NCBI GenBank assembly: GCA_944349545.1
Contig: CALVNG010000013.1
Span: 1-41,640, forward strand
Direction: 5' to 3'
Length of the DNA stretch: 41,640 bases
Source of the DNA: an uncultured Eubacteriales bacterium
GTDB taxonomy: Bacteria > Bacillota > Clostridia > Christensenellales > Aristaeellaceae
The notes under the pieces are model-generated. The model was not told the origin of the DNA. It did not search any database and worked only from the letters and a program-made list of their open reading frames with translations. A program made the position numbers and the translations under genes. Of the stretch, positions 294-34,350 are shown one piece after another (position 1 is the first letter of the stretch; each line of letters opens with the position of its first letter).

Positions 294-2165
294 TTACATT
301 TCGGGAATGAAGTCGGGCAGCTCGCCGGTAGAAACGAAGTAACCGGAGATGTAGCCGAAGGCGCACGCGTCCGCGTCGGCGTTGGAGCCCAGGCGGTTGG
401 TGCCGTGCACGCCGCCGGTCACCTCACCCGCCGCGAACAGGCCGGGGATGACCTGGCCGTAGATGTCCTTGACGCTGGTGTTGCCGTCGATGACCAGGCC
501 GCCCATGGTGTGGTGCACGGACGGATACTGCGGAATGGCATAGTACGGGCCTTCCTCCATCTTGACCATGGTGGAGGCCATCACCTTGCCGAAATCGGGA
601 TCGGCGCCGCTGTCGATGTAGCCGTTATGCTTGTCGATGGTGGCCTTGAGGTTTTCGGCGGTCACGCTGGGATATTCGCCCTTGACCGCGAAGGCGTTGA
701 TCTTCTCGGCCAGCTCCTCCAGCGTTTCGCCCTTGAGCACGCGGCCGCTCTGCACGCCGGCCTCCAGCTCTTCGGGCTTGACGAACGCGCTGACCACCGG
801 CTCGGTGAACAGGGCGTAGGTGGAGATGAAGCCGCTGTTGACGGCCGCGTTGGCGCACACGTCGCGGCGGTCGCCCTCGTTGACGTAGCGGTTGCCGTTA
901 TAATCCACGTAGATCACGCCGTAGGAGGGACCGGTGAAGGGCCACACGGCGTAGCTGTCCAGCACGCCGGTGTTGGGATCGGCCCAGGGATAGCGCTGGA
1001 TGTTGCTCATCTGGGTGGTGTTGGCGCCGATGGCCTGCGCAAGGTAGATGCCCTCGCCGGTGGAGGCGGCCTTGATGTTGGTGGTGGGCAGGTCGGCGGT
1101 CAGGTAGGGCACCTGGGTCTGGCGCATGTCCACATTGGAGGAGAAGCCGCCCGTGGCCAGAATGACGCCCTTCCTGGCCTCGATGGTCTTGTAGCCGTCC
1201 GCCGTAGCCACGCGGATGCCCACCACGCGGTTGGCCTCGTCGCGGGTGCGGTAGATCTCGACCATCTTGGTTTCCAGCTCGATGACGGCGTCGGTATTCT
1301 TGAGCATCTTGAGCTGAAGATCGGTGATATCGGAGCCCACCTGGTTTTCGGTCACATAGGTGCGGTAGCCGTAGTGTCCGCCGGGACGGGCCAGCGTATC
1401 GCGGATAACCAGGCCGTTGTCCAGCAGCAGGTTGAGGTAGTAGGGCGATCCGTAGACCATTTCGGTGACCAGCTCGGGCACGCTCATGTTGTCGCCGCCC
1501 TTGATGGTGTCCTCGATGTGCTTTTCGGCGGTATCGGGTTCCAGATCGAACTTTTCCTGCAGCTCCGCCGCGACCTTAGAGGTATAGGCCGCGTACTGGC
1601 CGCCGTTGATGGCGCTGTTGCCGCCGGTGGTGGAGAGCTTTTCCACCAGCACCGTGCTGGACCCGGACTCCACCGCGCTGTACGCCGCCGCCAGGCCCGC
1701 GAAGCCGCCGCCGACCACGACAACGTCGTAGCTCTCGTCCCAGGTTTCGGGCACTTCAAAGGAGCCCATCACAGGATAGTAATCCGGCGCAAGGTCCTCT
1801 TCGGCCTCCGGCGCCTTGGAGAAGGCGGCCAGATCCGCGCCGGCCTCGGTCAGCGCCGCTTCCACCGCGGCCTTCACGCCGTTGGAGGTCATGGTCGCGC
1901 CGCTGATGCCGTCCACCGCGATGCTCTGGGCTTCCACGATCATGCCGGGAAGCTTTTCCAGGGCAGGATAGCCGGGCGAGGTTTCGTTGTGCTCCTTGAT
2001 CACAACGCTCTCGATCGCGCTGTCGGTAAGGGTCACCTCGACCACCAGGCCGTCAAACATGCCTTTGACGGTCTCGGTGTAGGTGCCCGCCTTCATGCCT
2101 TCCGCCATGGCAGGCACGACCAGCATCAGCGTCACACAGAGAAAAATAGCCAGGATTCGTTTCAT
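294..2165 (-). CDS. Exported FMN/FAD-dependent reductase of the fumarate/urocanate reductase family
   Basis: A 623-residue exported flavoprotein. Residues 1-22 are a signal peptide with an AMA-E signal peptidase I site. Residues 24-107 are an FMN-binding domain with motif DGISGATMTS; Thr91 is the expected site of covalent FMN attachment by an ApbE-type transferase. From about residue 145 follows an FAD_binding_2 domain with dinucleotide motif VVVGGGFAG. Catalytic elements of flavocytochrome c fumarate reductases are present: SVHHTMGG (about residue 550), an Arg in GDRRDVCANA (about 433) and the C-terminal HGTNRLGSN (about 590). The substrate His of fumarate reductases (in IQAHP) is replaced by Tyr392 (IQRYP), a change known from urocanate reductase. 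Substrate is therefore uncertain: fumarate is less likely than urocanate or another enoate. No haem motif and no membrane partner are encoded nearby. The start at 2165 is chosen because it opens the signal peptide; an upstream in-frame ATG at 2222 would hide it. Confidence 0.88.
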   Translation of the reverse strand: MKRILAIFLCVTLMLVVPAMAEGMKAGTYTETVKGMFDGLVVEVTLTDSAIESVVIKEHNETSPGYPALEKLPGMIVEAQSIAVDGISGATMTSNGVKAAVEAALTEAGADLAAFSKAPEAEEDLAPDYYPVMGSFEVPETWDESYDVVVVGGGFAGLAAAYSAVESGSSTVLVEKLSTTGGNSAINGGQYAAYTSKVAAELQEKFDLEPDTAEKHIEDTIKGGDNMSVPELVTEMVYGSPYYLNLLLDNGLVIRDTLARPGGHYGYRTYVTENQVGSDITDLQLKMLKNTDAVIELETKMVEIYRTRDEANRVVGIRVATADGYKTIEARKGVILATGGFSSNVDMRQTQVPYLTADLPTTNIKAASTGEGIYLAQAIGANTTQMSNIQRYPWADPNTGVLDSYAVWPFTGPSYGVIYVDYNGNRYVNEGDRRDVCANAAVNSGFISTYALFTEPVVSAFVKPEELEAGVQSGRVLKGETLEELAEKINAFAVKGEYPSVTAENLKATIDKHNGYIDSGADPDFGKVMASTMVKMEEGPYYAIPQYPSVHHTMGGLVIDGNTSVKDIYGQVIPGLFAAGEVTGGVHGTNRLGSNADADACAFGYISGYFVSTGELPDFIPEM

Positions 2166-2208
2166 TTTTTTCTTACCCCCTTGTTTGTTATGTCTTTGAC
2201 CAAGTGAA

Positions 2209-2224
2209 ACGAACTGGTTCATTC
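2209..2224. promoter_or_regulatory. Candidate operator, 16-bp near-perfect palindrome
   Basis: AACGAACTGGTTCATT has arms AAYGAAC and GTTCRTT around a TG centre, with one mismatch pair. It overlaps the downstream edge of the -10 box of the flavoprotein promoter, a typical repressor position. The pattern resembles TetR-type operators, but no regulator gene lies next to it and the cognate protein is unknown. Confidence 0.5.
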
Positions 2225-2250
2225 ATACCATATTGTTAAAATCACGTCAA
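2222..2250 (-). promoter_or_regulatory. Probable promoter of the exported flavoprotein gene
   Basis: On the minus strand TTGACG (2245-2250) is separated by 17 bases from TATGAA (2222-2227), which is preceded by TGG, giving an extended -10. The distance to the start at 2165 leaves a leader of about 50 bases carrying the palindrome at 2209-2224. Confidence 0.65.
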
Positions 2251-2341
2251 TATCATTTTTGATATAATCCCATATCTGCAGCCATATAACCGACCGTCCT
2301 TTTGGAGGGGGAATCCCTTGTCCCTTAGCATCAGGAGCCAT

Positions 2342-2370
2342 TTGACATCGCGGCGAGAAAACGGTATGAT
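2342..2370 (+). promoter_or_regulatory. Promoter of the pseudo-sortase / DUF1015 unit
   Basis: A consensus TTGACA (2342-2347), a 17-base spacer and TATGAT (2365-2370). The start codon follows about 32 bases downstream of the expected transcription start. Confidence 0.75.
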
Positions 2371-2408
2371 GGATACTGAATGAATCTACGCTGAAGGGAG
2401 GGAGAGGC

Positions 2409-4442
2409 ATGAGCGAGGTTCCCAAGTACGACGGCGCCGCGCCTGCGTCCGGGGACGCAACCAATCCCTTTGCTCCCATTGACTATACCTCCCGCCTGAA
2501 AGCCCCCACCCGGCATACGGGCGCCTTTCACGCCATGCAGCCGCTTCAGCCCGGACAGCTCTACGGCACGGCCCATTGGATGAGCCCGCCCAAGCCGCTT
2601 TCTCCCAGCCCCGCGCCCCAGGAGAGCGTGCCTGTCCTGCCGGTGCAGGATACGCCCGCGTTCCCCGCGTCCTTCCCTGCCGGCGCGGGTCCGTCGCCGG
2701 CCGCACAGACCTCTGAAGGCATGCCGTCCGCGCCCTCCGCCTCCGGCATTCCGCCGTACCTTAAGCGGCGGCCCGCCCTCGGCAGCGCCGCGGCGCAGAC
2801 TCAGCCGCCGCATAAGGCCGGGACAGATGCGTACATCGCCGCGGATGCTCAGCGTCCCTTTTTCTCAGCCGAAGCCGCTCCGGAACCGCCGGCGCAGCCC
2901 GCGCGCCCATCCGCCGGGCATCACCCGGCCTCCCGCAACCGCCGCAGCCGGGTTGCGCGCCACCAGCCGGAGGAAGCCGCCGCCCCTGACACGGCGGCGG
3001 AAAGCGCCTCTGCCTCAGCCGTCCCTCCGGATACCCTGCCGCCCGTTCCGGAGATGCCGTCGGGCTTCTCCTGCCAGCCCCTCTGGGATGTCTCTCCCAC
3101 GCCTGAGTCCCCGCTGTTTCCCGCGGGCGGCGAACCCGGCGCGCCCTATGCGCCACCGCTTCAGCCCGGCAAGCCCTATCCGTCCGACCTGCCCGAGGAG
3201 CCCGCGCCCTTTCCGCAGGCAACGCAGCCGTCGGATGAAATCGACGCCTTTTTCTCCGCCGCCACGGAAGAACCCTCCATGCCGGAGGAACCTGCAAAAA
3301 GCCCTGCGCCTCCGTTGCGCGATCCCTTCACGCCCGCCCTCCATGCGCATGACGTGCCGGAGGAAGATGTCCATTCCCGCGTTTCCACTGCCGACGCGCC
3401 AGCGTCCCCTCCGCCCCGCCGTCCGTCGCATCCCGCGCCTTCGCCGGAGGCGGCGCGGCCCCAACGCCCGCCGGTGCGCCCCGCGCGCGTGGCCGCGCTG
3501 ATGGCGGCGTTTCTGATGCTGGTGTTCTGCCTGGTTCAGGGCAGCCGCATCCTTACCGACCTGGCCCGCAACGAGCGCGAGATGGAGGAGGTGCGGCAGG
3601 ACTACCTGGAGCGTACCGGTATGGAACTGCAAAGCGGCGCGGCCCGTGTGGACCTTTTGCCCGCCGGTCAGACCTATGTGCCCTCGCCCACGCCGGCCCT
3701 TACACAGGCAGTGCAGACCCCTTCGCCTACGCCCATCATCCCCATTCGGGAAAACGCCATCCAAAGCCTGAACAAACGCGACACCAGCAACGTGCAGGAG
3801 GTATCCGCGCCAACGGACACCCCGAGCCTGCGCTCCCGCCTCACCGAATATCCGGGCAATCCGCTGAAGAACGTGATGGAAAGCCTGCTGCCCCTGATCG
3901 AGGAAAACGGTGAGGTCGTGGGCAAGCTGACCATTCCGGGTGTGCTGGAGGAGGTGGTGGTGCAGCGCAACAACACCTACTACCTGACCCACAACTACCG
4001 GGGCGGCTCCTCGGACGCCGGAGCAGTCTTTGTGGATGAAAGCTGCTCCTTCCGTTCCCCGCCCGAAAACCTGCTCCTGCGCGGGCAGAGCGCCGTCGAG
4101 GGTAAGGTGTTTGCGCCGCTTTGGCAGTATGCCACCGCCGGGCGTGACTTCGTGGCCTCCGCCACCACCGCGCATCTGACCACCCTGTATGAAGAAGCGG
4201 ATTACGTGCTCTTCGCGGTCATCGTGGCCAGCAGCCTCCCCTCCAGCCCTGATTATTTCAACTACGCCGGTTATCCCAGCTTCGTCACCGATGCGGACAT
4301 GCTGTCCTATGTCGAGGCGGCGCGCGCGCACAGCCTGTATTCGTTCAACGTGGACGTGACCGCCTCGGACAGGCTGCTGACGCTTGCCACGCTTGGCAGC
4401 GGCACAGAAAGCCTGGTGCTTTTGTACCGCCAGATGCGCTGA
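2409..4442 (+). CDS. Membrane protein with Pro-rich cytoplasmic arm and catalytically dead sortase-like domain
   Basis: A 677-residue protein in three parts. Residues 1-357 are low-complexity, rich in Pro, Ala and Ser, with no signal peptide. Residues about 360-380 form a single membrane segment (VAALMAAFLMLVFCLV), followed by a charged, possibly coiled stretch and a Thr/Pro linker. Residues about 500-677 resemble a class B sortase domain: VVGKLTIPGVLEEVVVQRN, YYLTHNYRGGSSDAGAVFVD, then NLLLRGQSAVEGKVFAPLWQY and LLTLATLGSG. In active sortases these last two blocks read YGHN and TLSTC. Here the His position is Gln560, the Cys position is Leu662, and the expected Arg seems to be Ser668, so transpeptidase activity is very unlikely. 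The frame is open throughout with strong GC-rich codon bias, so this is not an obvious frameshift artefact. The start has a good GAGGGAGAGG ribosome binding site. Role unknown; a structural, sensing or scaffold function is inference. Confidence 0.8.
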   Translation: MSEVPKYDGAAPASGDATNPFAPIDYTSRLKAPTRHTGAFHAMQPLQPGQLYGTAHWMSPPKPLSPSPAPQESVPVLPVQDTPAFPASFPAGAGPSPAAQTSEGMPSAPSASGIPPYLKRRPALGSAAAQTQPPHKAGTDAYIAADAQRPFFSAEAAPEPPAQPARPSAGHHPASRNRRSRVARHQPEEAAAPDTAAESASASAVPPDTLPPVPEMPSGFSCQPLWDVSPTPESPLFPAGGEPGAPYAPPLQPGKPYPSDLPEEPAPFPQATQPSDEIDAFFSAATEEPSMPEEPAKSPAPPLRDPFTPALHAHDVPEEDVHSRVSTADAPASPPPRRPSHPAPSPEAARPQRPPVRPARVAALMAAFLMLVFCLVQGSRILTDLARNEREMEEVRQDYLERTGMELQSGAARVDLLPAGQTYVPSPTPALTQAVQTPSPTPIIPIRENAIQSLNKRDTSNVQEVSAPTDTPSLRSRLTEYPGNPLKNVMESLLPLIEENGEVVGKLTIPGVLEEVVVQRNNTYYLTHNYRGGSSDAGAVFVDESCSFRSPPENLLLRGQSAVEGKVFAPLWQYATAGRDFVASATTAHLTTLYEEADYVLFAVIVASSLPSSPDYFNYAGYPSFVTDADMLSYVEAARAHSLYSFNVDVTASDRLLTLATLGSGTESLVLLYRQMR

Positions 4443-4490
4443 CGGCGGTTCCGCGCCCGCCAACCTCGGTTGATCTAAGGAGGTATTGCC

Positions 4491-5750
4491 ATGCCCGATT
4501 CCAATGTGGTGGTCTATCCCGGAGAGCTGCTTTTACCCGCCGACCGTACCAGCCTCACCGAATGGGCCTGCGTCGCCTGCGACCAGTTTACCTCCCAGCC
4601 CAAATACTGGGAGGATGTTCGCCGGCTGGTCGGCGCCCATCCCTCCACGCTGGATCTGATTCTGCCCGAATGCTATCTGAACGAAGCCCCGCAGCGCATC
4701 GGACGCATTCACCAGGCCATGCGTGACGACCTGGAGGGAGGCGTGCTGGTTCCCGCCGTATCCAACGGCTTCATTCTGGTGGAGCGCAACACCTCCAGCG
4801 GCGCGCGCGTGGGTCTGGTTGTGCTGCTGGATCTGGAATGCTATGACCCTGCCAGGGGGAGCCGATCCCTGGTGCGCGCCTCGGAGGAAACCATCGCGGA
4901 GCGCGTGCCGCCCCGGATGGTCGTGCGGCGCGGCGCGGCGCTGGAAACCAGCCATGTGCTGATGCTGATGGACGATCCCATGCACAGCGTAATCGAGCCC
5001 CTGTTCCAAAAGCATGACGAGCTGGACCGCCTCTATGACTTTCCGCTGATGATGGGCGGAGGACATCTGACCGGCTACGCCGTGACCGACCCGGCCGATA
5101 TCGCTTCTGTCTACGACGCGCTGGGCCGCCTGCGCGCGCGCCTGTCCCCGGAGGACCCGCTGCTCTTTGCCGTGGGCGACGGCAACCACAGCCTGGCCGC
5201 CGCAAAGGCCTGCTGGGAGGAGATCAAGCGCGGCCTGACGCCCGAGGAAACAGTCGTGCACCCTGCGCGCTTTGCCATGGTGGAGCTGGAAAACATCCAT
5301 GACGACGCGCTGCGCATGGAGCCTATTCATCGCGTGCTGTTCGGCTGCGACGGCGACAACCTGCTCGACGAAGTGGCCGCCTTTGCCGCTCAAAAGGGCG
5401 CAACGCTGGCTGCGGGGCCCCAGGCGCAGGAGATCGTCGCCGTTTACGAGGGCAAGGAAGTGACCCTCGCCATCGAGGGCTCGCCCTATAAGCTGGCCGT
5501 GGGCACGCTGCAGGCGTTCCTGGACTGGTGGCTGCTCTCCCATCCCCAGGCGCGGCTGGATTACATCCATGGCGAGGACACCGTGCGCACGCTGGTAGCG
5601 GGCGAAGGAGCCGTTGGCTTTTTGCTGCCCACGCCCGAAAGGGACCGCCTGTTCGACACCATCCGCACGGAAGGCGCGCTGCCCCGCAAGACGTTCTCCC
5701 TGGGCTCCGCCAACGAAAAGCGGTATTATATGGAATGCCGCCGGCTGTGA
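4491..5750 (+). CDS. DUF1015 family protein
   Basis: A 419-residue soluble protein matching the DUF1015 family in length and motifs: an N-terminal region around YPGELLLPADRTSLTEW, the central VGDGNHSLAAAKACWEE block (about residues 228-244), and the C-terminal LPRKTFSLGSANEKRYYMECR. No signal peptide or membrane segment is seen, so it should be cytoplasmic. The biochemical function of DUF1015 is not established as far as I know; the conserved GDGNH block could be catalytic, but that is inference. It lies 48 bases behind the pseudo-sortase gene with its own AAGGAGG site and no visible promoter, so both are probably cotranscribed and end at the terminator at 5763. Confidence 0.85.
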   Translation: MPDSNVVVYPGELLLPADRTSLTEWACVACDQFTSQPKYWEDVRRLVGAHPSTLDLILPECYLNEAPQRIGRIHQAMRDDLEGGVLVPAVSNGFILVERNTSSGARVGLVVLLDLECYDPARGSRSLVRASEETIAERVPPRMVVRRGAALETSHVLMLMDDPMHSVIEPLFQKHDELDRLYDFPLMMGGGHLTGYAVTDPADIASVYDALGRLRARLSPEDPLLFAVGDGNHSLAAAKACWEEIKRGLTPEETVVHPARFAMVELENIHDDALRMEPIHRVLFGCDGDNLLDEVAAFAAQKGATLAAGPQAQEIVAVYEGKEVTLAIEGSPYKLAVGTLQAFLDWWLLSHPQARLDYIHGEDTVRTLVAGEGAVGFLLPTPERDRLFDTIRTEGALPRKTFSLGSANEKRYYMECRRL

Positions 5751-5762
5751 GCCGTCTGCCCC

Positions 5763-5799
5763 GGACCCGGTCCAAAAGGACCGGGTCCTTTCTTTTTTT
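5763..5799 (+). terminator. Intrinsic terminator after the DUF1015 gene
   Basis: GGACCCGGTCC, loop AAAA, GGACCGGGTCC: a perfect 11-bp stem, then a T-rich tail (TTTCTTTTTTT). Confidence 0.92.
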
Positions 5800-5871
5800 C
5801 GGGAATATCTGTCCTTCGCCGGTCATAGCTTTTTCCAGAGAAAGAAAACATCAAAAAGCCAAATTGTGGAA

Positions 5872-5900
5872 TTGACTTGCGCCGCCATTCATTGTATATT
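5872..5900 (+). promoter_or_regulatory. Promoter of the DUF6273 / deacetylase-glycosidase unit
   Basis: TTGACT (5872-5877), a 17-base spacer and TATATT (5895-5900) within an AT-rich stretch, about 57 bases upstream of the GTG start at 5957. Confidence 0.75.
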
Positions 5901-5956
5901 TACAGAAAACATTTCCATTTTTGCTTTTTTCTTTGCTTTTTAAGGAGGCGTTTGTT

Positions 5957-6658
5957 GTGAAAAAGATGCTGTCTCTTCTGCTGTCCGTGCTGATGCTGGC
6001 GTGCTGGCCTGTCCTGTCCCATGCGCTGGAGCTGCGTGGCTATGATTCCGAGCTGGGCTATGAATACGTGGCTCTGGGCCGTTGCCCGCAGGATGAAGAC
6101 GGCGGTGAGCGCGACATTCTCTGGCGTGTGCTGGACGTTTCGGACGATGAAGCCTATCTGCTGAGCGAATACATCCTGTTCAACCACCGCGTACATGAGG
6201 ATGACGAGGAATATGAGGACTTCGGCGGCCAGTGGAACCGGACAGAGCTGTATCAGCTGCTGCACGGGGAGAAGCTGGACCAGTGGTTCACCCCGGAAGA
6301 AATGGAGCACCTGGTGTCCAGCGAAGAGCTGGGGTATCTCTTCCTGGCCTCCGGAGAGGATCTGAAAAACCGTGAATACGGTTTCTCCAGCGACAAGACC
6401 CGTCAGGGGTACGGCACCCCCTACGCGCTCGCCAACGGGCTGTTCCGCTATTCCAACGGTTCCTCGCCCTACTGGACGCGGTCGCAATCCGCCACCAAGG
6501 CGTACGGCACCCGCTGCACCAAGGTGGACGGAAAGCTGGGCTATATTCGCTGCGTGGTGATGAACGAAGGGGTGCGTCCCGCCATTCGGCTGTCCCTGAC
6601 GGACCTGGCGCTCACCGGCAGCGGCACGCTTGAGGCCCCCTATCGCCTGGCGAGGTGA
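5957..6658 (+). CDS. Secreted DUF6273 domain protein
   Basis: A 233-residue protein with a signal peptide (MKKMLSLLLSVLMLACWPVL, probable cleavage after SHA). The mature part follows the DUF6273 pattern: ILWRVLDV, AYLLSEYILFNHR, GGQWNRTELYQLL, LGYLFLASGEDL, YGTPYALANG, YWTRSQSA and finally GVRPAIRLSL. The GTG start at 5957 is chosen because TAAGGAGG stands 7 bases upstream; the in-frame ATG at 5921 lies before that site and would spoil the signal peptide. DUF6273 has no established function that I know of; it is common in exported proteins of gut Firmicutes. The next gene begins 7 bases downstream, so the two are surely cotranscribed and probably act in the same extracellular task. Confidence 0.8.
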   Translation: MKKMLSLLLSVLMLACWPVLSHALELRGYDSELGYEYVALGRCPQDEDGGERDILWRVLDVSDDEAYLLSEYILFNHRVHEDDEEYEDFGGQWNRTELYQLLHGEKLDQWFTPEEMEHLVSSEELGYLFLASGEDLKNREYGFSSDKTRQGYGTPYALANGLFRYSNGSSPYWTRSQSATKAYGTRCTKVDGKLGYIRCVVMNEGVRPAIRLSLTDLALTGSGTLEAPYRLAR

Positions 6659-6665
6659 GGCGGGC

Positions 6666-8807
6666 ATGAAAAAGTCATTTTGGTGTCTGCTGCTTCTTGC
6701 GGCGCTGCTGCTGGTCCCTGCCGTATGCAGCGCCGCCTCTGAGGCGCAGGACATTACCGCTGACTGCGAGATCCGGACCTCCGGCGGGAGCGACGTTGTG
6801 CGCCTGTACGACCGTCAGTACACCACCCGCTGGACCGGCCGCGAGCGCCGGGAAACCTGGATTGAATTTACCACGGCTGACGCCGTGCCTGCCGGGTTCC
6901 TCTATGTATGCTTTGCGGTCATGCCCGATGAATGGCGCGTGGAAACGCAGGTAGACGACGAATGGGTTGCGCTGGTTTCCGGCGGCACAACCTATATGCA
7001 TACCATCGTGGAGCTTGGCGGCGCCACGCATTTCAGGCTGTGGGCACGCTTTGACAAGGCTCAGCAGCTCATCATCAATGAGCTGTTCGTGCTGGGGGAG
7101 GGGGATTTGCCCTCCTGGGTGCAGGTATGGGAGCCCGCGCCGGAAAAGGCGGATCTGCTGGTGCTGGCCGCCCATCCCGATGACGAGCTGATCTACTTTG
7201 GCGGCCTGCTTCCCACCTATGCCACGGAGCAGGGCAAAAAGACTGTCGTTGTCTACATGACCGATTCCAACACCACCCGCATGAGCGAGCTGCTCAACGG
7301 TCTGTGGGAGATGGGCGTGCACAGCTACCCGGTTATCGGCCCGTTTTACGACGGCTATTCCCGCTCTCTGGAGGAAGGGTACAGAAAATGGCCCAGGAAA
7401 CAGGCGCGTTCATTTGTGATGGAGCAAATTCGCCGCTACCGTCCCGATATGGTAGTCAGCCATGATGTTGAGGGCGAATACGGCCACGGTGCGCACCGCG
7501 TATGCGCAGATGTGGCGCTGTACTGCGTGCAGAACTGCATGCGCGTGGACGCAGAAAGCGACTCTGCCGCAAAATACGGCCTGTGGACCGTACAGAAGCT
7601 CTACCTTCATCTTTACGGAGACGATCCTCTCCGGCTGGACTGGCATGTGCCGCTGTCCTCTCTGGGCGGACGGACGGGTCTGCAGGCGGCGCAGGATGCT
7701 TATGCGCTGCATGTGACGCAGCAGAATACCAATTATGTCGTGACCGATGAAGGCCCGTACAGCTGCGCGCTCTTCGGCCTGGCCTACACCACCGTGGGTG
7801 AGGATGTGGAACGCAACGATCTGTTTGAAAATGTCGTTCCCGGAGGCGTCAACCCGTCGGCTTATGCCACCCCAAGCCCCGAGCATGTGACATTCGCCAG
7901 GCCGGATGTCACATGCGAATGGCCGTCCACTCTCACCTGCGACCGCGATGCGCTGGGCTATCCCACGCAGGGAGAACACGTGCTCAAGGATGAGGAGGCG
8001 GGGCTCTGGTTCTACGCCTCGCCCTCGCTGGTGGTGCGCATCGACCGCTTTTCCAATCCGGAGGGGCCCGTCGTCTGGTATGAGGCCGAAGTCTTTGCCG
8101 ACACATCGGTCAACCGCTTCGGGTCCGTTCTCTTCGACCCCTCCGACCCCGAACGCCAGCATGTACAGCCGGCGCGCATCGCCACGGAAAACCAGGTGGT
8201 TTTCGGCATGAACACGGATTACTACACCTATCGCACCGGGAGGGGGCTTTCGGTGGGCATCATCATCCGGGGCGGAGAGGTGCTCTATGACGATGCGCCC
8301 AAGACCCAGCGGGACAAGTTTCCCAATCTTGATACCCTGGCCATGTTTTCCAACGGGGAATGGGATGTATTTGATTTCAACGCCCATCTTGCCCAGGATT
8401 ATCTGAACATGGGTGCGGTGGATGTGTTTTCCTTCGGTCCCTGGCTGTTTCGGGGCGAGGACTTCAATCCCTATGTGTTCGAATCGCCGCGCGGCGTATA
8501 CCAGGAGCCGCGCTGTGCCGTGGGCATGTTTGAAAACGGCCACTATGTCGCCATGATGGTGGAAGGCCGCATGGGTAAGGAAAGCGCGGGCGTCAGCCTG
8601 CCTGAACTCTACGAGCTGATGCGTGCCACCGGCTGCACGCTTGCCATCAATCTTGACGGCGGGCAGACGGCCGCCTTCACCTTCATGGGCGAGCGCATCA
8701 CCCGCGTAGGCACCTACAGCGGCGGCCGCACCTACCCGCGCACTACCACCGAGCTGATCGGCATCGGCCGCTCCGACCTGATCGACCCCACCGCCGAAAC
8801 CGAATGA
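6666..8807 (+). CDS. Secreted PIG-L/LmbE deacetylase fused to a phosphodiester glycosidase (NAGPA-like) domain
   Basis: A 713-residue secreted protein. Residues 1-24 are a signal peptide (VCSA-A or SAA-S cleavage). Residues about 30-155 look like a discoidin/galactose-binding-like beta domain (LYDRQYTTRWTGRERRETW). Residues about 163-385 are a PIG-L/LmbE deacetylase: AAHPDDELIYFGG carries the metal-binding His-Asp-Asp, and SHDVEGEYGHGAHRV carries the second His. This family removes N-acetyl groups from GlcNAc-containing sugars. Residues about 450-708 match NAGPA-type phosphodiester glycosidases: VRIDRFSNPEGPVVWYEAEV, NTDYYTYRTGRGLSVGIIIR, and LAINLDGGQTAAFTF with the family Asp-Gly-Gly. That family cleaves sugar-phosphodiester bonds. 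Together they could deacetylate and release phosphodiester-linked amino sugars from a wall polymer; substrate is inference. The start at 6666 has a weak GAGGTGAGG site within the end of the previous gene. Confidence 0.85.
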   Translation: MKKSFWCLLLLAALLLVPAVCSAASEAQDITADCEIRTSGGSDVVRLYDRQYTTRWTGRERRETWIEFTTADAVPAGFLYVCFAVMPDEWRVETQVDDEWVALVSGGTTYMHTIVELGGATHFRLWARFDKAQQLIINELFVLGEGDLPSWVQVWEPAPEKADLLVLAAHPDDELIYFGGLLPTYATEQGKKTVVVYMTDSNTTRMSELLNGLWEMGVHSYPVIGPFYDGYSRSLEEGYRKWPRKQARSFVMEQIRRYRPDMVVSHDVEGEYGHGAHRVCADVALYCVQNCMRVDAESDSAAKYGLWTVQKLYLHLYGDDPLRLDWHVPLSSLGGRTGLQAAQDAYALHVTQQNTNYVVTDEGPYSCALFGLAYTTVGEDVERNDLFENVVPGGVNPSAYATPSPEHVTFARPDVTCEWPSTLTCDRDALGYPTQGEHVLKDEEAGLWFYASPSLVVRIDRFSNPEGPVVWYEAEVFADTSVNRFGSVLFDPSDPERQHVQPARIATENQVVFGMNTDYYTYRTGRGLSVGIIIRGGEVLYDDAPKTQRDKFPNLDTLAMFSNGEWDVFDFNAHLAQDYLNMGAVDVFSFGPWLFRGEDFNPYVFESPRGVYQEPRCAVGMFENGHYVAMMVEGRMGKESAGVSLPELYELMRATGCTLAINLDGGQTAAFTFMGERITRVGTYSGGRTYPRTTTELIGIGRSDLIDPTAETE

Positions 8808-28415: not shown

Positions 28416-29864
28416 TTATCCCCGCAGCATCTCAATGCCCTTGTCGATCCGGCTAAGGCTTTCCTCCCTGCCCAGGAGGTAGGCGATCTCGGTCGCGCCG
28501 CCGGGCGTGGAGGCCTGGCCGGAGAGGGCCGTGCGCACGGGCCACATCATCTGGCCGGTCTTGAGGCCGTTTTCCGTGGCCAGGGTCATCAGGAGGTCCT
28601 TGACGGCCTCTTCGCTGAAATTCTCCAGCGCGGCCAGCGCGGGCCGGGCCAGCTCCAGCGCGCGCAGGGCCACGGCGCTGTCGGTCTTCATCTTTTTATG
28701 GGTGTAGAGCTCGGCCCCATACGCCGGCAGCTCGGCCAGAAAGCGCACCATGTCCGGCACCCGGTCAAAGACCTCGGTGCGGGTGTGCATCAGCTCGGCC
28801 AGGCGACGGTAGTCGATGCCCTTGCCCGCCAGCACCCGGTCAAACCAGGGCGTGGCCATGGCCAGATAGTCCTCAAAGGGCATGCGGGTGATGTACTCAT
28901 GGTTGAACCACACCAGCTTTTCGGTGTTGAAGATGGCCGGGGCCTTGCTGAGTCCCTTGAGATCAAAGGCCTCCACCAGCTCCTGCAGGGTGAAGAACTC
29001 CCGCTCGTCTCCCGGGCTCCAGCCCAGAAGCGCGATAAAGTTGATGATGGCGTCGCGCACATAGCCTTGGGCCAGCAGGTCCTCAAAGCTGGGATCGCCA
29101 TAGCGCTTGCTGAGCTTGCGGGAGGCGTCCTTCATGACGGGGCTTAAATGAATATAGACGGGCGGCTGCCAGCCGAAGGCCTCATAGAGCAGGTTGTATT
29201 TGGGCGCGGAGCTGAGGTACTCGGTACCGCGCATCACGTGGGTGATGCCCATGAGGTGATCGTCGATGACGTTGGCGAAATTGTAGGTGGGCAGGCCGTC
29301 GGCCTTGATGAGCACGTTGTCGTCCAGCGTGTCGCAGGGGGCCTCGACATGGCCGTAGAGCGCGTCGTCAAAGCTGGCTGTGCCGGTAAGCGGGATGTTC
29401 TGCCGGATGACGAACGGCTCGCCGCTCTGCATGCGGCGCAGGGCCTCGTCTTTGGGGATGCTCAGGCAATGCTTGTCGTACTTCCACTGCTCGCCGCGGG
29501 CCGTGGCCGCGTCGCGGCGGGCCTGCAGCTCCTCCTTGGTGCAGAAGCAGGGATAGGCCGCGCCGCTCTCCACCAGCTGCATGGCGTAGGGCAGGTAGGT
29601 GTCGCGCCGCTGGGTCTGGATGTAGGGACCGTAGTCGCCGCCCACGTCCGGGCCCTCGTCATATGCCAGGCCCGCTTCGCGCAGGCTCTTGTAGATCAGC
29701 TCCACCGCGCCGGGCACCTCGCGCTCCTGATCGGTGTCCTCAATGCGCAGGATGAACTTGCCCCCGTTCTTTTTGGCGAACAGGTAGGTGTAGAGGGCGG
29801 TTCGCAGTCCGCCCAGATGCAGGTAACCCGTAGGGCTGGGTGCGAACCGGGTGCGTACGGTCAT
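28416..29864 (-). CDS. gltX: Glutamyl-tRNA synthetase
   Basis: A 482-residue class I synthetase. The HIGH variant is in APSPTGYLHLGGLRTALY, with the ATP-binding RIEDTDQERE after it. A zinc-type cluster is CFCTKEELQA...KYDKHC, and the KMSKS equivalent is RKLSKRYGDPS. The second half holds the helical anticodon-binding domain. Length and architecture fit bacterial GluRS. Because the window also encodes GlnRS, this enzyme need not mischarge tRNA-Gln, but whether it is discriminating cannot be told by eye. Ribosome binding site AAGGAGG at 7 bases. It leads an operon-like run gltX, GT-C-like protein, leuS. Confidence 0.97.
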   Translation of the reverse strand: MTVRTRFAPSPTGYLHLGGLRTALYTYLFAKKNGGKFILRIEDTDQEREVPGAVELIYKSLREAGLAYDEGPDVGGDYGPYIQTQRRDTYLPYAMQLVESGAAYPCFCTKEELQARRDAATARGEQWKYDKHCLSIPKDEALRRMQSGEPFVIRQNIPLTGTASFDDALYGHVEAPCDTLDDNVLIKADGLPTYNFANVIDDHLMGITHVMRGTEYLSSAPKYNLLYEAFGWQPPVYIHLSPVMKDASRKLSKRYGDPSFEDLLAQGYVRDAIINFIALLGWSPGDEREFFTLQELVEAFDLKGLSKAPAIFNTEKLVWFNHEYITRMPFEDYLAMATPWFDRVLAGKGIDYRRLAELMHTRTEVFDRVPDMVRFLAELPAYGAELYTHKKMKTDSAVALRALELARPALAALENFSEEAVKDLLMTLATENGLKTGQMMWPVRTALSGQASTPGGATEIAYLLGREESLSRIDKGIEMLRG

Positions 29865-31610: not shown

Positions 31611-33356
<1,746 letters not shown>

Positions 33357-33413
33357 GCTCGCGCCTTCCTTTCCATCCTGTTTCCGGACAGCGCAAAGCC
33401 GCCGGTTCGCATC

Positions 33414-33442
33414 ATTATAGAACGAAACGGCGGCTTTGGCAA
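33414..33442 (-). promoter_or_regulatory. Promoter of glnS, inside an inverted repeat
   Basis: Minus strand: TTGCCA (33437-33442), 17-base spacer, perfect TATAAT (33414-33419). The spacer and the region after the -10 are arms of an 11-bp inverted repeat CAAAGCCGCCG / CGGCGGCTTTG (33394-33438), so the -10 lies in the loop. Confidence 0.72.
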
Positions 33443-33495
33443 GCCTGTACGGCTTGAAAATGCCTGTTTTGCGGCGTTTTGGGGCGAAACTCCCC

Positions 33496-34350
33496 TCACT
33501 TCGCCCCCAGGAACCCCTCGATGCGCGCCCGCGCGGCCCGCGCGTCGGCGCGGCCCAGCTGATACTGCGCCTCCAGCACGTCCGGGTTCTTTTCCACCCG
33601 CCCGATGGGGATGCGGCGGGAGGGACACAGCACCAAGGCCCGCCCCTCGGCCTGGGCCTGCTGCGCATAAGCCAGCGAGGCGTTGTACACCTCATGCCGC
33701 CGCTCGCTGGCCCGGACAAAGGCGGGATAGCGGCGGTAGCGCGCGCGCATGAGCGCAAGCGCCCGGTCCGGCCGCTTGACAAAGCCCTCCGGCTGCGTGC
33801 GCACCACGAGGCAGCGCGCGTAGCCCATGTCCTCAAAGCGCTTGAGCGGGATCGAGTCCGCCGTGCCGCCATCCAGGTAGCGCCGCCCCTCCCATGCCAC
33901 GATGGTGGACACCAGCGGCATGGAGGAGCTGGCGCGCAGGGCTTCCAGCAGCGTATGCGCGTCCCGCTTTCCGTCCAGGCATACGGCCTGCCCCGTCTCC
34001 ACGTCGGTGGCCAGCGCGTAAAAGCGCACGGGGCTTTTCAAAAACGCATCGAAGTCGAACGGGTCCAGCCGATAGGGCAGTTCCTCGTAGCTGAAGGCGC
34101 GGCCCACCAGGTCGCCCGTGAGCAGCAGCGAGCGCAGGCTCATGAAACGCCAGTTTCGGCAGTATTTTTTCGTATAGCGGATGTTGCGCCCCCGCTGGCC
34201 GGAGACGAAGCTCGCCCCGTGGATGGCGCCCGCCGACACGCCCAGAATCCCGTCGGGCCTGACGCCCCAGTCCATCATCTCATCCAGCACGCCGGCGGTA
34301 TAGATGCCGCGCATGCCGCCGCCCTCCAGCACAAAGCCCGTCCGCTCCAT
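33496..34350 (-). CDS. Patatin-like phospholipase
   Basis: A 284-residue cytoplasmic acyl hydrolase of the patatin/RssA-type family. The oxyanion loop is GGGMRG (residues 10-15), the nucleophile is Ser39 in GVSAG, and the catalytic Asp is Asp160 in YLDGGTADSIPLKRFEDMGY. The fourth conserved block is SSSMPLVSTIV (about residues 140-150). Length matches the bacterial YjjU-type branch. No signal peptide. The start at 34350 is ATG; a GTG two codons earlier with AGAGGA closer is an alternative. Likely hydrolyses membrane or dietary lipids; substrate unknown. An extended -10 lies within the stop codon of the preceding gene. Confidence 0.92.
   Translation of the reverse strand: MERTGFVLEGGGMRGIYTAGVLDEMMDWGVRPDGILGVSAGAIHGASFVSGQRGRNIRYTKKYCRNWRFMSLRSLLLTGDLVGRAFSYEELPYRLDPFDFDAFLKSPVRFYALATDVETGQAVCLDGKRDAHTLLEALRASSSMPLVSTIVAWEGRRYLDGGTADSIPLKRFEDMGYARCLVVRTQPEGFVKRPDRALALMRARYRRYPAFVRASERRHEVYNASLAYAQQAQAEGRALVLCPSRRIPIGRVEKNPDVLEAQYQLGRADARAARARIEGFLGAK

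What the first reader, a model, noticed from the sequence alone, without database searches (positions are those of the whole stretch)
2409..4442. Sortase-fold membrane protein that has lost Cys, His and Arg
The extracellular domain aligns by eye with class B sortases over several blocks (VVGKLTIPG, YYLTHNYRGGSSDAGAVFVD, TLATL). The three residues that define the enzyme are gone: His to Gln560, Cys to Leu662, and Arg probably to Ser668. It is attached to about 357 residues of Pro/Ala/Ser-rich cytoplasmic sequence through one membrane segment. The loss of all three, in a frame that is otherwise intact and well expressed in appearance, suggests a retained non-catalytic role, for instance binding of a wall or sorting-signal ligand and signalling inward, or a scaffold. 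I know of no described system of this shape.
Basis: partly seen in the sequence, partly recalled or inferred. Interest (0 to 1): 0.75.

Follow-up and report, generated by a model that had tools for sequence, protein, structure and literature searches.

The report
Conserved dead sortase with disordered arm

Summary
Window 2409-4442 encodes a 677-residue single-pass protein whose outer domain is a class B sortase homologue (PDB profile search 4.7e-23; AlphaFold pLDDT 88; the 19 best Foldseek matches are class B sortases). It is not a decayed copy. Nineteen orthologues (15 of 17 genomes searched in the genus, 4 in a sister genus) form one clade apart from 27 intact sortases. His and Cys are gone in 19 of 19, Arg in 18 of 19. 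Domain dN/dS is 0.08-0.40, and new residues became invariant. The gene precedes a DUF1015 gene in 18 of 19 loci, in the window as a likely operon. The long disordered arm holds conserved short motifs. One, IPPYLKRRP, resembles the FtsZ C-terminal peptide: 8 of 19 arms beat nearly all their shuffles, 9 do not. Best reading: a pseudo-sortase working as a membrane-spanning adaptor, with a ligand-binding outer domain and an arm docking to cytoplasmic, possibly divisome, proteins (MapZ-like shape). This mechanism is inferred. The main rival is a SipA-like helper of intact sortases. I saw no described pseudo-sortase in the paper listings searched.

The parts
2342..2370 (+). promoter-like site TTGACA-17-TATGAT, 11 of 12 consensus bases
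   Evidence: consensus scan, 2 sites found in 2100-6000 against 0.4 expected
2394..2402 (+). ribosome-binding site AAGGGAGGG before the ATG
   Evidence: sequence, by eye
2409..4442 (+). pseudo-sortase gene, 677 aa
2409..3479 (+). Pro/Ala/Ser-rich arm, residues 1-357, taken as cytoplasmic (orientation inferred from the layout and the basic residues before the membrane segment)
   Evidence: composition
2463..2480 (+). arm motif NPFAPI, residues 19-24; N[PVL]F.[PR][IV] in 14 of 19 arms
2550..2564 (+). arm motif PGQLY, residues 48-52; similar motif in 15 of 19 arms
2748..2774 (+). FtsZ-C-terminal-peptide-like motif IPPYLKRRP, residues 114-122
   Evidence: pattern in 9 of 16 arms; FtsZ-derived score matrix, 0 of 200 shuffles of this arm as high
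2940..2951 (+). basic motif RRSR, residues 178-181; RR[RS][RS] in 11 of 19 arms
3480..3536 (+). single membrane segment, from residue 358 (best 19-residue hydropathy window, mean 2.24)
3849..4439 (+). sortase-fold outer domain, residues 481-677
4059..4085 (+). PPENLLLRG, residues 551-559; P551, P552, E553, N554, L557, R558 invariant in 16 of 16 orthologues, variable in intact sortases
   Evidence: of three later members, G159 has Tyr at 558 and G138 Ile at 557 (by eye)
4086..4088 (+). Gln560 in place of the catalytic His
4392..4394 (+). Leu662 in place of the catalytic Cys
4410..4412 (+). Ser668 in place of the catalytic Arg
4477..4483 (+). ribosome-binding site AAGGAGG of the DUF1015 gene
   Evidence: sequence, by eye
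4491..5750 (+). DUF1015 gene (PF06245, 1.1e-56), 419 aa, likely second gene of the operon; 48 bases after the pseudo-sortase stop
5763..5788 (+). intrinsic-terminator-like stem-loop, 11 pairs, followed by a T-rich tail
   Evidence: 7 terminator-like sites in the region, 3.4 expected by chance

Best explanation
This is a pseudo-sortase: a class B sortase paralogue that lost its catalytic His and Cys once, before two genera split, and Arg after the first branch (G159), and has since been kept as a membrane-spanning adaptor. Shown here: sortase fold, loss of the triad, single origin, purifying selection, new invariant residues, conserved arm motifs, and adjacency to DUF1015 with operon signals in the window. 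Inferred: the outer domain binds, without cutting, a wall component or a sorting-signal-like peptide; the disordered arm reaches into the cytoplasm and docks to partner proteins through short motifs. The most likely partners are FtsZ-tail-binding proteins such as SepF or FtsA (both present in the genome), because one motif resembles the FtsZ C-terminal peptide. The protein would then link an outer-surface signal or anchor to the division machinery, in the manner of MapZ.
For: Fold. Triad loss: His and Cys in 19 of 19, Arg in 18 of 19; all three kept in 28 of 28 and 27 of 27 (the same set less one) compared homologues. One clade, support 100/100, and 100/99 without the catalytic columns. dN/dS 0.075-0.40 for the domain in 7 orthologue pairs. 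New constraint: P551, P552, E553, N554, L557, R558, D628 and M631 invariant in 16 of 16; Trp506, invariant in 28 of 28 intact homologues, is R/K/Q in 16 of 16. Arm motifs against composition shuffles of 16 arms: N[PVL]F.[PR][IV] 12 (shuffle mean 0.03), PG[QE].Y 11 (0.28), RR[RS][RS] 11 (0.32), FtsZ-tail-like 9 (0.09). FtsZ of the window's genome ends DLGVPAFLRRPTRK. A matrix built from FtsZ tails alone ranks six pseudo-sortases first among 157 ORFs of the 16 loci (pseudo-sortases included), and 8 of 19 arms beat all but at most 2 of 200 of their shuffles. SepF and FtsA are present. In B. subtilis, SepF binding is abolished without the Pro or Phe of the FtsZ tail and falls below 25% without the Leu or Arg after them (PMC3418248, passages); the arm motif keeps Pro, an aromatic, Leu and a basic residue.
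Against: No experiment. The FtsZ-like motif is patchy: G003, G010, G011, G014, G138, G159 and contig-truncated G009 show no clear match; the variants in G029 and G178 carry one extra residue and do not beat shuffles; G005 and G008 are weak (15 and 18 of 200). It has Tyr where FtsZ has Phe, and lies inside the arm, not at a C terminus. I noticed it by eye before testing it. The corresponding DNA pattern occurs in the genome at chance level (45 matches, control 55), so one occurrence means little. Intact paralogues are under stronger constraint (dN/dS 0.02-0.22 in 4 pairs), so the dead domain is somewhat relaxed. The adjacent DUF1015 points to no division role. The outer domain's ligand is unknown.
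Confidence: 0.42

Rival explanations
1. SipA-like helper: the dead domain binds sorting signals or pilin-like substrates and hands them to an intact class B sortase elsewhere in the cell; the arm only controls location.
For: Own genome has an intact class B sortase beside a VPKTG surface protein. In 14 of 16 other same-genus genomes I fetched an intact class B homologue with an N-terminal arm, membrane segment and sortase domain; 12 of these form one clade. SipA is a dead signal-peptidase relative needed for pilus assembly (PMC4049620, abstract).
Against: In 16 of 16 genomes no other sortase hit lies on the contig of the pseudo-sortase. The intact paralogue of that 12-member clade was not found in the window's own genome (93% complete). 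The active-site surroundings are remodelled, so the old peptide groove may not bind the old signal. Pilin and sorting-signal genes were not searched for.
Confidence: 0.27
2. Sensor coupled to DUF1015: the outer domain senses a wall or nutrient signal and the arm controls the DUF1015 protein encoded next to it.
For: DUF1015 is the next recognised gene, co-directional, in 18 of 19 loci (in three of them recognised by eye) with operon signals in the window. In 5 of 12 other genera of the family that I read, DUF1015 instead follows a dehydrogenase gene resembling phosphoglycerate dehydrogenase (three checked by Pfam), so the link to the pseudo-sortase looks derived and then kept.
Against: G008 keeps the pseudo-sortase without any DUF1015 match in its genome (91% complete). 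In G029 about 370 bases separate the two genes. Function of DUF1015 unknown; no significant match to a solved structure.
Confidence: 0.14
3. Enzyme with different chemistry: the remodelled site carries a new reaction using other residues.
For: New invariant residues around the old site, Arg558 two residues before the lost His in 16 of 16.
Against: No conserved nucleophile: the positions of His, Cys and Arg vary freely (Q/S/N/G/V/R; V/L/I; S/C/N/T/Y/R). Cys546 of the window is absent in 3 of 19 orthologues (G014, G016; G159). Arg558 is Tyr in G159.
Confidence: 0.06
4. Decayed or misread copy of an ordinary sortase.
For: Weaker constraint than in intact paralogues, otherwise none found.
Against: 19 orthologues with the same losses in open frames of 483-1494 aa (one cut by a contig end), dN/dS well under 1, promoter-like site, ribosome-binding sites and terminator-like site.
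Confidence: 0.02

Closest known systems
Class B sortases (NCBIfam TIGR03064; e.g. S. aureus SrtB, PDB 4lfd, 1ng5)
   Same: Fold, including the helix before the last two strands; N-terminal membrane segment and outer domain.
   Different: No His, Cys or Arg; below the family cut-off (the intact L001 is also below it); arm of hundreds of residues; protein sorting not expected.
MapZ of Streptococcus pneumoniae (PMC7055233, abstract)
   Same: Disordered N-terminal cytoplasmic arm with a short conserved binding region, one membrane segment, outer C-terminal domain.
   Different: MapZ binds FtsZ itself; here the motif resembles the FtsZ tail, so it would bind FtsZ's partners. The outer domain here is a sortase fold. 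Homology to MapZ was not tested.
SipA of Streptococcus pyogenes (PMC4049620, abstract)
   Same: Enzyme relative at the cell surface that lost its catalytic residues and kept the fold.
   Different: Signal-peptidase fold, encoded in a pilus cluster; no sortase hit lies on the pseudo-sortase's contigs here.
Intact class B sortase homologues of the same genus (L048-L061)
   Same: Arm, membrane segment, sortase domain; 32-39% identity to the window domain.
   Different: Triad intact in 14 of 14. Of 18 arms of intact homologues scanned (13 of the genus, 5 of other genera), none had 2 or fewer of 200 shuffles as high for the FtsZ-like score; the lowest was 3 of 200 (G007).

Membership tests
Class B sortase (enzyme) | class B sortase fold | tested here: met
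Class B sortase (enzyme) | catalytic Cys | tested here: not met
   Leu662; absent in 19 of 19 orthologues
Class B sortase (enzyme) | catalytic His | tested here: not met
   Gln560; absent in 19 of 19
Class B sortase (enzyme) | catalytic Arg | tested here: not met
   Ser668; absent in 18 of 19, present in G159
Class B sortase (enzyme) | score above curated family cut-off | tested here: not met
   TIGR03064 62.1 of 153.75 bits; the intact L001 also falls short, 118.7, so this test is weak here
Class B sortase (enzyme) | transpeptidase activity on a sorting signal | not testable with these tools
   needs purified protein
MapZ-like division-site receptor | disordered cytoplasmic arm, one membrane segment, outer domain | tested here: met
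   by composition and hydropathy only; disorder and orientation are inferred
MapZ-like division-site receptor | binding to the division machinery | tested here: inconclusive
   FtsZ-tail-like motif in part of the clade; binding itself not testable
MapZ-like division-site receptor | sequence homology to MapZ | not tested
   MapZ sequence was not compared
SipA-like assembly helper | dead enzyme domain kept by selection | tested here: met
SipA-like assembly helper | encoded beside a sortase gene | tested here: not met
   no other sortase hit on the same contig in 16 of 16 genomes
SipA-like assembly helper | encoded beside pilin genes | not tested
   pilin and sorting-signal genes were not searched for; most neighbours were not annotated

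The most novel reading that the evidence does not exclude
A sortase fold turned into a receptor of the cell-division machinery: the outer pseudo-sortase domain reads or grips the wall at the division site, and the disordered arm carries an imitation of FtsZ's own C-terminal tail, competing for or recruiting SepF/FtsA. As far as my searches show, this would be the first described pseudo-sortase and a new kind of link between the wall-anchoring fold and division.
Probability: 0.2. Interest if true: 0.85.

Novelty: new variant of a known kind. Interest (0 to 1): 0.62.

Why it matters
Sortases are studied as enzymes and drug targets, and annotation by homology assumes activity. A conserved clade that kept the fold and dropped the triad shows that the sortase fold can be retained without catalysis, most likely for binding. 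If the arm docks to FtsZ-tail-binding proteins, it gives a directly testable case of a surface domain wired to the divisome in Candidatus Limiplasma and its relatives (Clostridia), and of tail mimicry as a docking principle. The first-branching member, G159, lacks His and Cys but has Arg, which suggests the order of loss.

Tried and rejected
Decay or misread copy: rejected by 19 orthologues and dN/dS. First AlphaFold job with two near-identical rows was useless (pLDDT 35.8); the second, with 13 further rows from viral contigs, worked. Those 13 rows (of 16 loci found) keep His and Cys, so the model's fold leans on intact sortases. Viral-contig scan with the pseudo-sortase profile: 44 stretches matched a pattern, none confirmed. 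Scan of genome contigs with the single protein: 1 locus, Ca. Limiplasma pullicola; its contig has the same length as that of G006, so the two are probably one genome and I count it once. DNA-level search for the FtsZ-like motif in the own genome gave chance numbers (45 matches, control 55), so the genome-wide count does not support it. Of 7 terminator-like sites, five besides the one after DUF1015 lie inside genes and one overlaps it; 3.4 were expected by chance.

Literature: no pseudo-sortase was seen in the listings (15 of 78 papers listed; 7 of 7; 1 of 1; 15 of 15). The library is open-access PMC only, so this is not proof of absence. DUF1015 gave two papers, neither read beyond the listing. 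Read: passages of PMC3418248 and PMC8178401 (not used); abstract and section list of PMC7055233 and PMC4049620.

Rows left out of counts: the 28 intact homologues are those that I fetched (14 of the genus, 6 of other genera, 7 further hits, and L001), not all hits. The ten fetched sortase-plus-C39 proteins were not in that count; nine look intact by eye and one (G012) has lost His and Cys. Three other hits (G056, G069, G097), with His and Cys by eye, were also left out, and G004 was left out of the tree. Of 11 further family loci scanned with a crude pattern, 5 showed the intact motifs and 6 gave no readable match, one of them known to be intact. Two arms under 30 aa were dropped. Three of the seven dN/dS pairs share the same three genomes. 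G013's DUF1015 lies about 146 bases from a contig start with no pseudo-sortase frame readable there, so its state is open.

Neighbour names that I gave no library check (aldolase-like, ABC-exporter-like, phosphatase-like genes) are by eye and not used.

Full report
What is there. The ORF at 2409-4442 (+) is well formed: a promoter-like TTGACA-17-TATGAT at 2342-2370, a ribosome-binding site at 2394-2402, ATG at 2409. The protein has 357 residues of Pro/Ala/Ser-rich sequence (22%, 17%, 10%), one hydrophobic segment from residue 358, a linker, and a C-terminal domain from about residue 481. That the arm is cytoplasmic is inferred from the layout and the basic residues before the membrane segment.

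Fold. By sequence alone the domain matches solved class B sortases at 5.6e-15. The profile of 16 orthologues matches them at 4.7e-23. NCBIfam TIGR03064 matches 16 of 16 orthologue domains; the window scores below its cut-off, as does the intact sortase L001 of the same genome. Pfam's sortase model does not match. An AlphaFold model from 15 rows has mean pLDDT 87.9 and pTM 0.86; the best 19 PDB matches by Foldseek are class B sortases. The 13 rows added to window and L032 keep His and Cys, so the model is not independent of intact sortases.

The triad. In an alignment of 16 orthologues with 28 intact homologues, residues 560, 662 and 668 lie under His, Cys and Arg, which are invariant in the 28. 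With three more members of a sister genus, His and Cys are absent in 19 of 19 and Arg in 18 of 19; only G159, the first branch of the clade as drawn, has Arg. The replacements vary (Q, S, N, G, V, R; V, L, I; S, C, N, T, Y), as expected once catalysis is gone.

Not decay. A profile search of 300 genomes drawn from the family shows 19 members at 255 bits or more, then a gap to 192 bits for intact homologues. Fifteen lie in the window's genus (17 genomes searched; the two without are 65% and 86% complete) and four in genus g14. The named close relative is Candidatus Limiplasma pullicola, 92% identical, probably the same genome as G006. The 19 form one clade against 27 intact sortases with support 100/100, and 100/99 when the catalytic columns are removed. 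The tree is unrooted; loss is the simplest direction because the intact side spans several genera. dN/dS of the domain in seven orthologue pairs, not all independent, is 0.075-0.40; the arm gives 0.31-0.53 in six pairs; intact paralogues give 0.02-0.22 in four pairs. So the dead domain is under purifying selection, though weaker than in the enzymes. Residues P551, P552, E553, N554, L557, R558, D628 and M631 are invariant in 16 of 16 and variable in intact sortases; Trp506, invariant in 28 of 28, is Arg, Lys or Gln in 16 of 16. Of the three members added later, G159 has Tyr at 558 and G138 Ile at 557 (by eye). The site was remodelled, not merely lost.

Paralogues. Fourteen of 16 other genomes of the genus gave an intact class B homologue with arm, membrane segment and sortase domain; 12 of these form one clade. 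The window's genome has an intact class B sortase next to a VPKTG surface protein on another contig; a member of the 12-strong clade was not found in it.

Operon. A DUF1015 gene (PF06245, 1.1e-56) starts 48 bases after the pseudo-sortase stop with its own ribosome-binding site. No terminator-like site lies between, and an 11-pair terminator-like stem follows DUF1015 at 5763-5788. DUF1015 is the next recognised gene downstream in 15 of 16 loci and, by eye, in 3 of 3 further ones: 18 of 19. The gap is 19-48 bases in the four loci measured and about 370 in G029. G008 has no DUF1015 match in its genome. In 5 of 12 other genera of the family that I read, DUF1015 follows a 2-hydroxyacid-dehydrogenase gene resembling phosphoglycerate dehydrogenase (three checked by Pfam; one matches that NCBIfam model below its cut-off). 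The pairing with the pseudo-sortase therefore looks derived and then conserved. What DUF1015 does is unknown; no significant match to a solved structure was found.

The arm. Arms differ greatly in length (153-1187 residues by open frame) and sequence, yet short motifs recur: N[PVL]F.[PR][IV] (12 of 16 arms; mean 0.03 in composition shuffles), PG[QE].Y (11 of 16; 0.28), a basic RR[RS][RS] (11 of 16; 0.32) and [ILV]P.[YF][LM][KRQT] (9 of 16; 0.09). With the three further arms and slightly wider patterns the counts are 14, 15, 11 and 11 of 19; the first two motifs keep their order and a spacing of 26-30 residues in 13 of 13 arms that have both. One arm (G009) is cut by a contig end. Related sequences share motifs by descent, so the shuffle values are not probabilities of independent events.

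The FtsZ-like motif. The last of these resembles the conserved C-terminal peptide of FtsZ, which in the window's genome ends DLGVPAFLRRPTRK, with small variations in its relatives. I noticed this by eye and then tested it with a score matrix built from FtsZ tails only. Among 157 ORFs of 150 aa or more in the 16 loci, pseudo-sortases included, the six best scores are pseudo-sortases, and 8 of the best 11. Eight of 19 arms beat all but at most 2 of 200 of their own shuffles (G000, G006, G015, G012, G001, G007, G002, G016); G005 and G008 are weaker (15 and 18 of 200); nine do no better than shuffles, among them G029 and G178, whose variants PAGFLRK and PGAFLRR carry an extra residue. None of 18 arms of intact homologues reached 2 of 200; one had 3. 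The motif's DNA pattern is at chance level in the genome as a whole. In B. subtilis the Pro and Phe of the FtsZ tail are required for SepF binding, and the following Leu and Arg matter strongly (PMC3418248, passages). SepF and FtsA are both present here. I take this as a good lead, not proof.

How it most likely works. A non-catalytic outer domain binds something at the wall, and the arm docks to cytoplasmic proteins, with SepF or FtsA as the leading candidates. The shape is that of MapZ, in which a largely disordered cytoplasmic arm carries the FtsZ-binding region (PMC7055233, abstract). The main rival is a SipA-like helper of intact sortases (PMC4049620, abstract). A link to DUF1015 is a third possibility.

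Known or new. Searches for pseudoenzyme, inactive, degenerate, non-catalytic or pseudo-sortase terms showed no description of such a protein in the listings (with 15 of 78 papers listed, 40, 85, 86). It fails three defining features of the enzyme, so I file it as a homologue of class B sortases and not as one.

Noticed in passing
L118 2250-4664, L120 2022-4388, L126 1750-3339 (minus) and seven more loci L119, L121-L125, L127: A second sortase-related family, in nine genomes of the genus and one of another genus: membrane segment, sortase domain and a C-terminal C39-peptidase-like domain in one protein (Pfam PF13529 over cut-off in L126, below it in L120, the only two tested for it). In G012 (L126) its sortase domain has also lost His and Cys, an apparently independent loss.
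   Followed up: partly
L128 613-3810: One 1065-aa open frame joins DUF11-type surface repeats, an IPKTG sorting-signal-like motif and an intact sortase domain; whether this is a real fusion or an assembly effect was not tested.
   Followed up: partly
L145 and other FtsZ loci: FtsZ in this genus has a long tail with a conserved inner stretch (YPTPSYEDMSFNMPMDE in the window's genome) between core and C-terminal peptide.
   Followed up: no
window 6630-8807: One protein combines a PIG-L deacetylase domain with a NAGPA phosphodiester glycosidase domain.
   Followed up: no
window 28416-29864 and 31611-33872: Two class I Glu/Gln-type tRNA synthetases lie close together on the minus strand.
   Followed up: no
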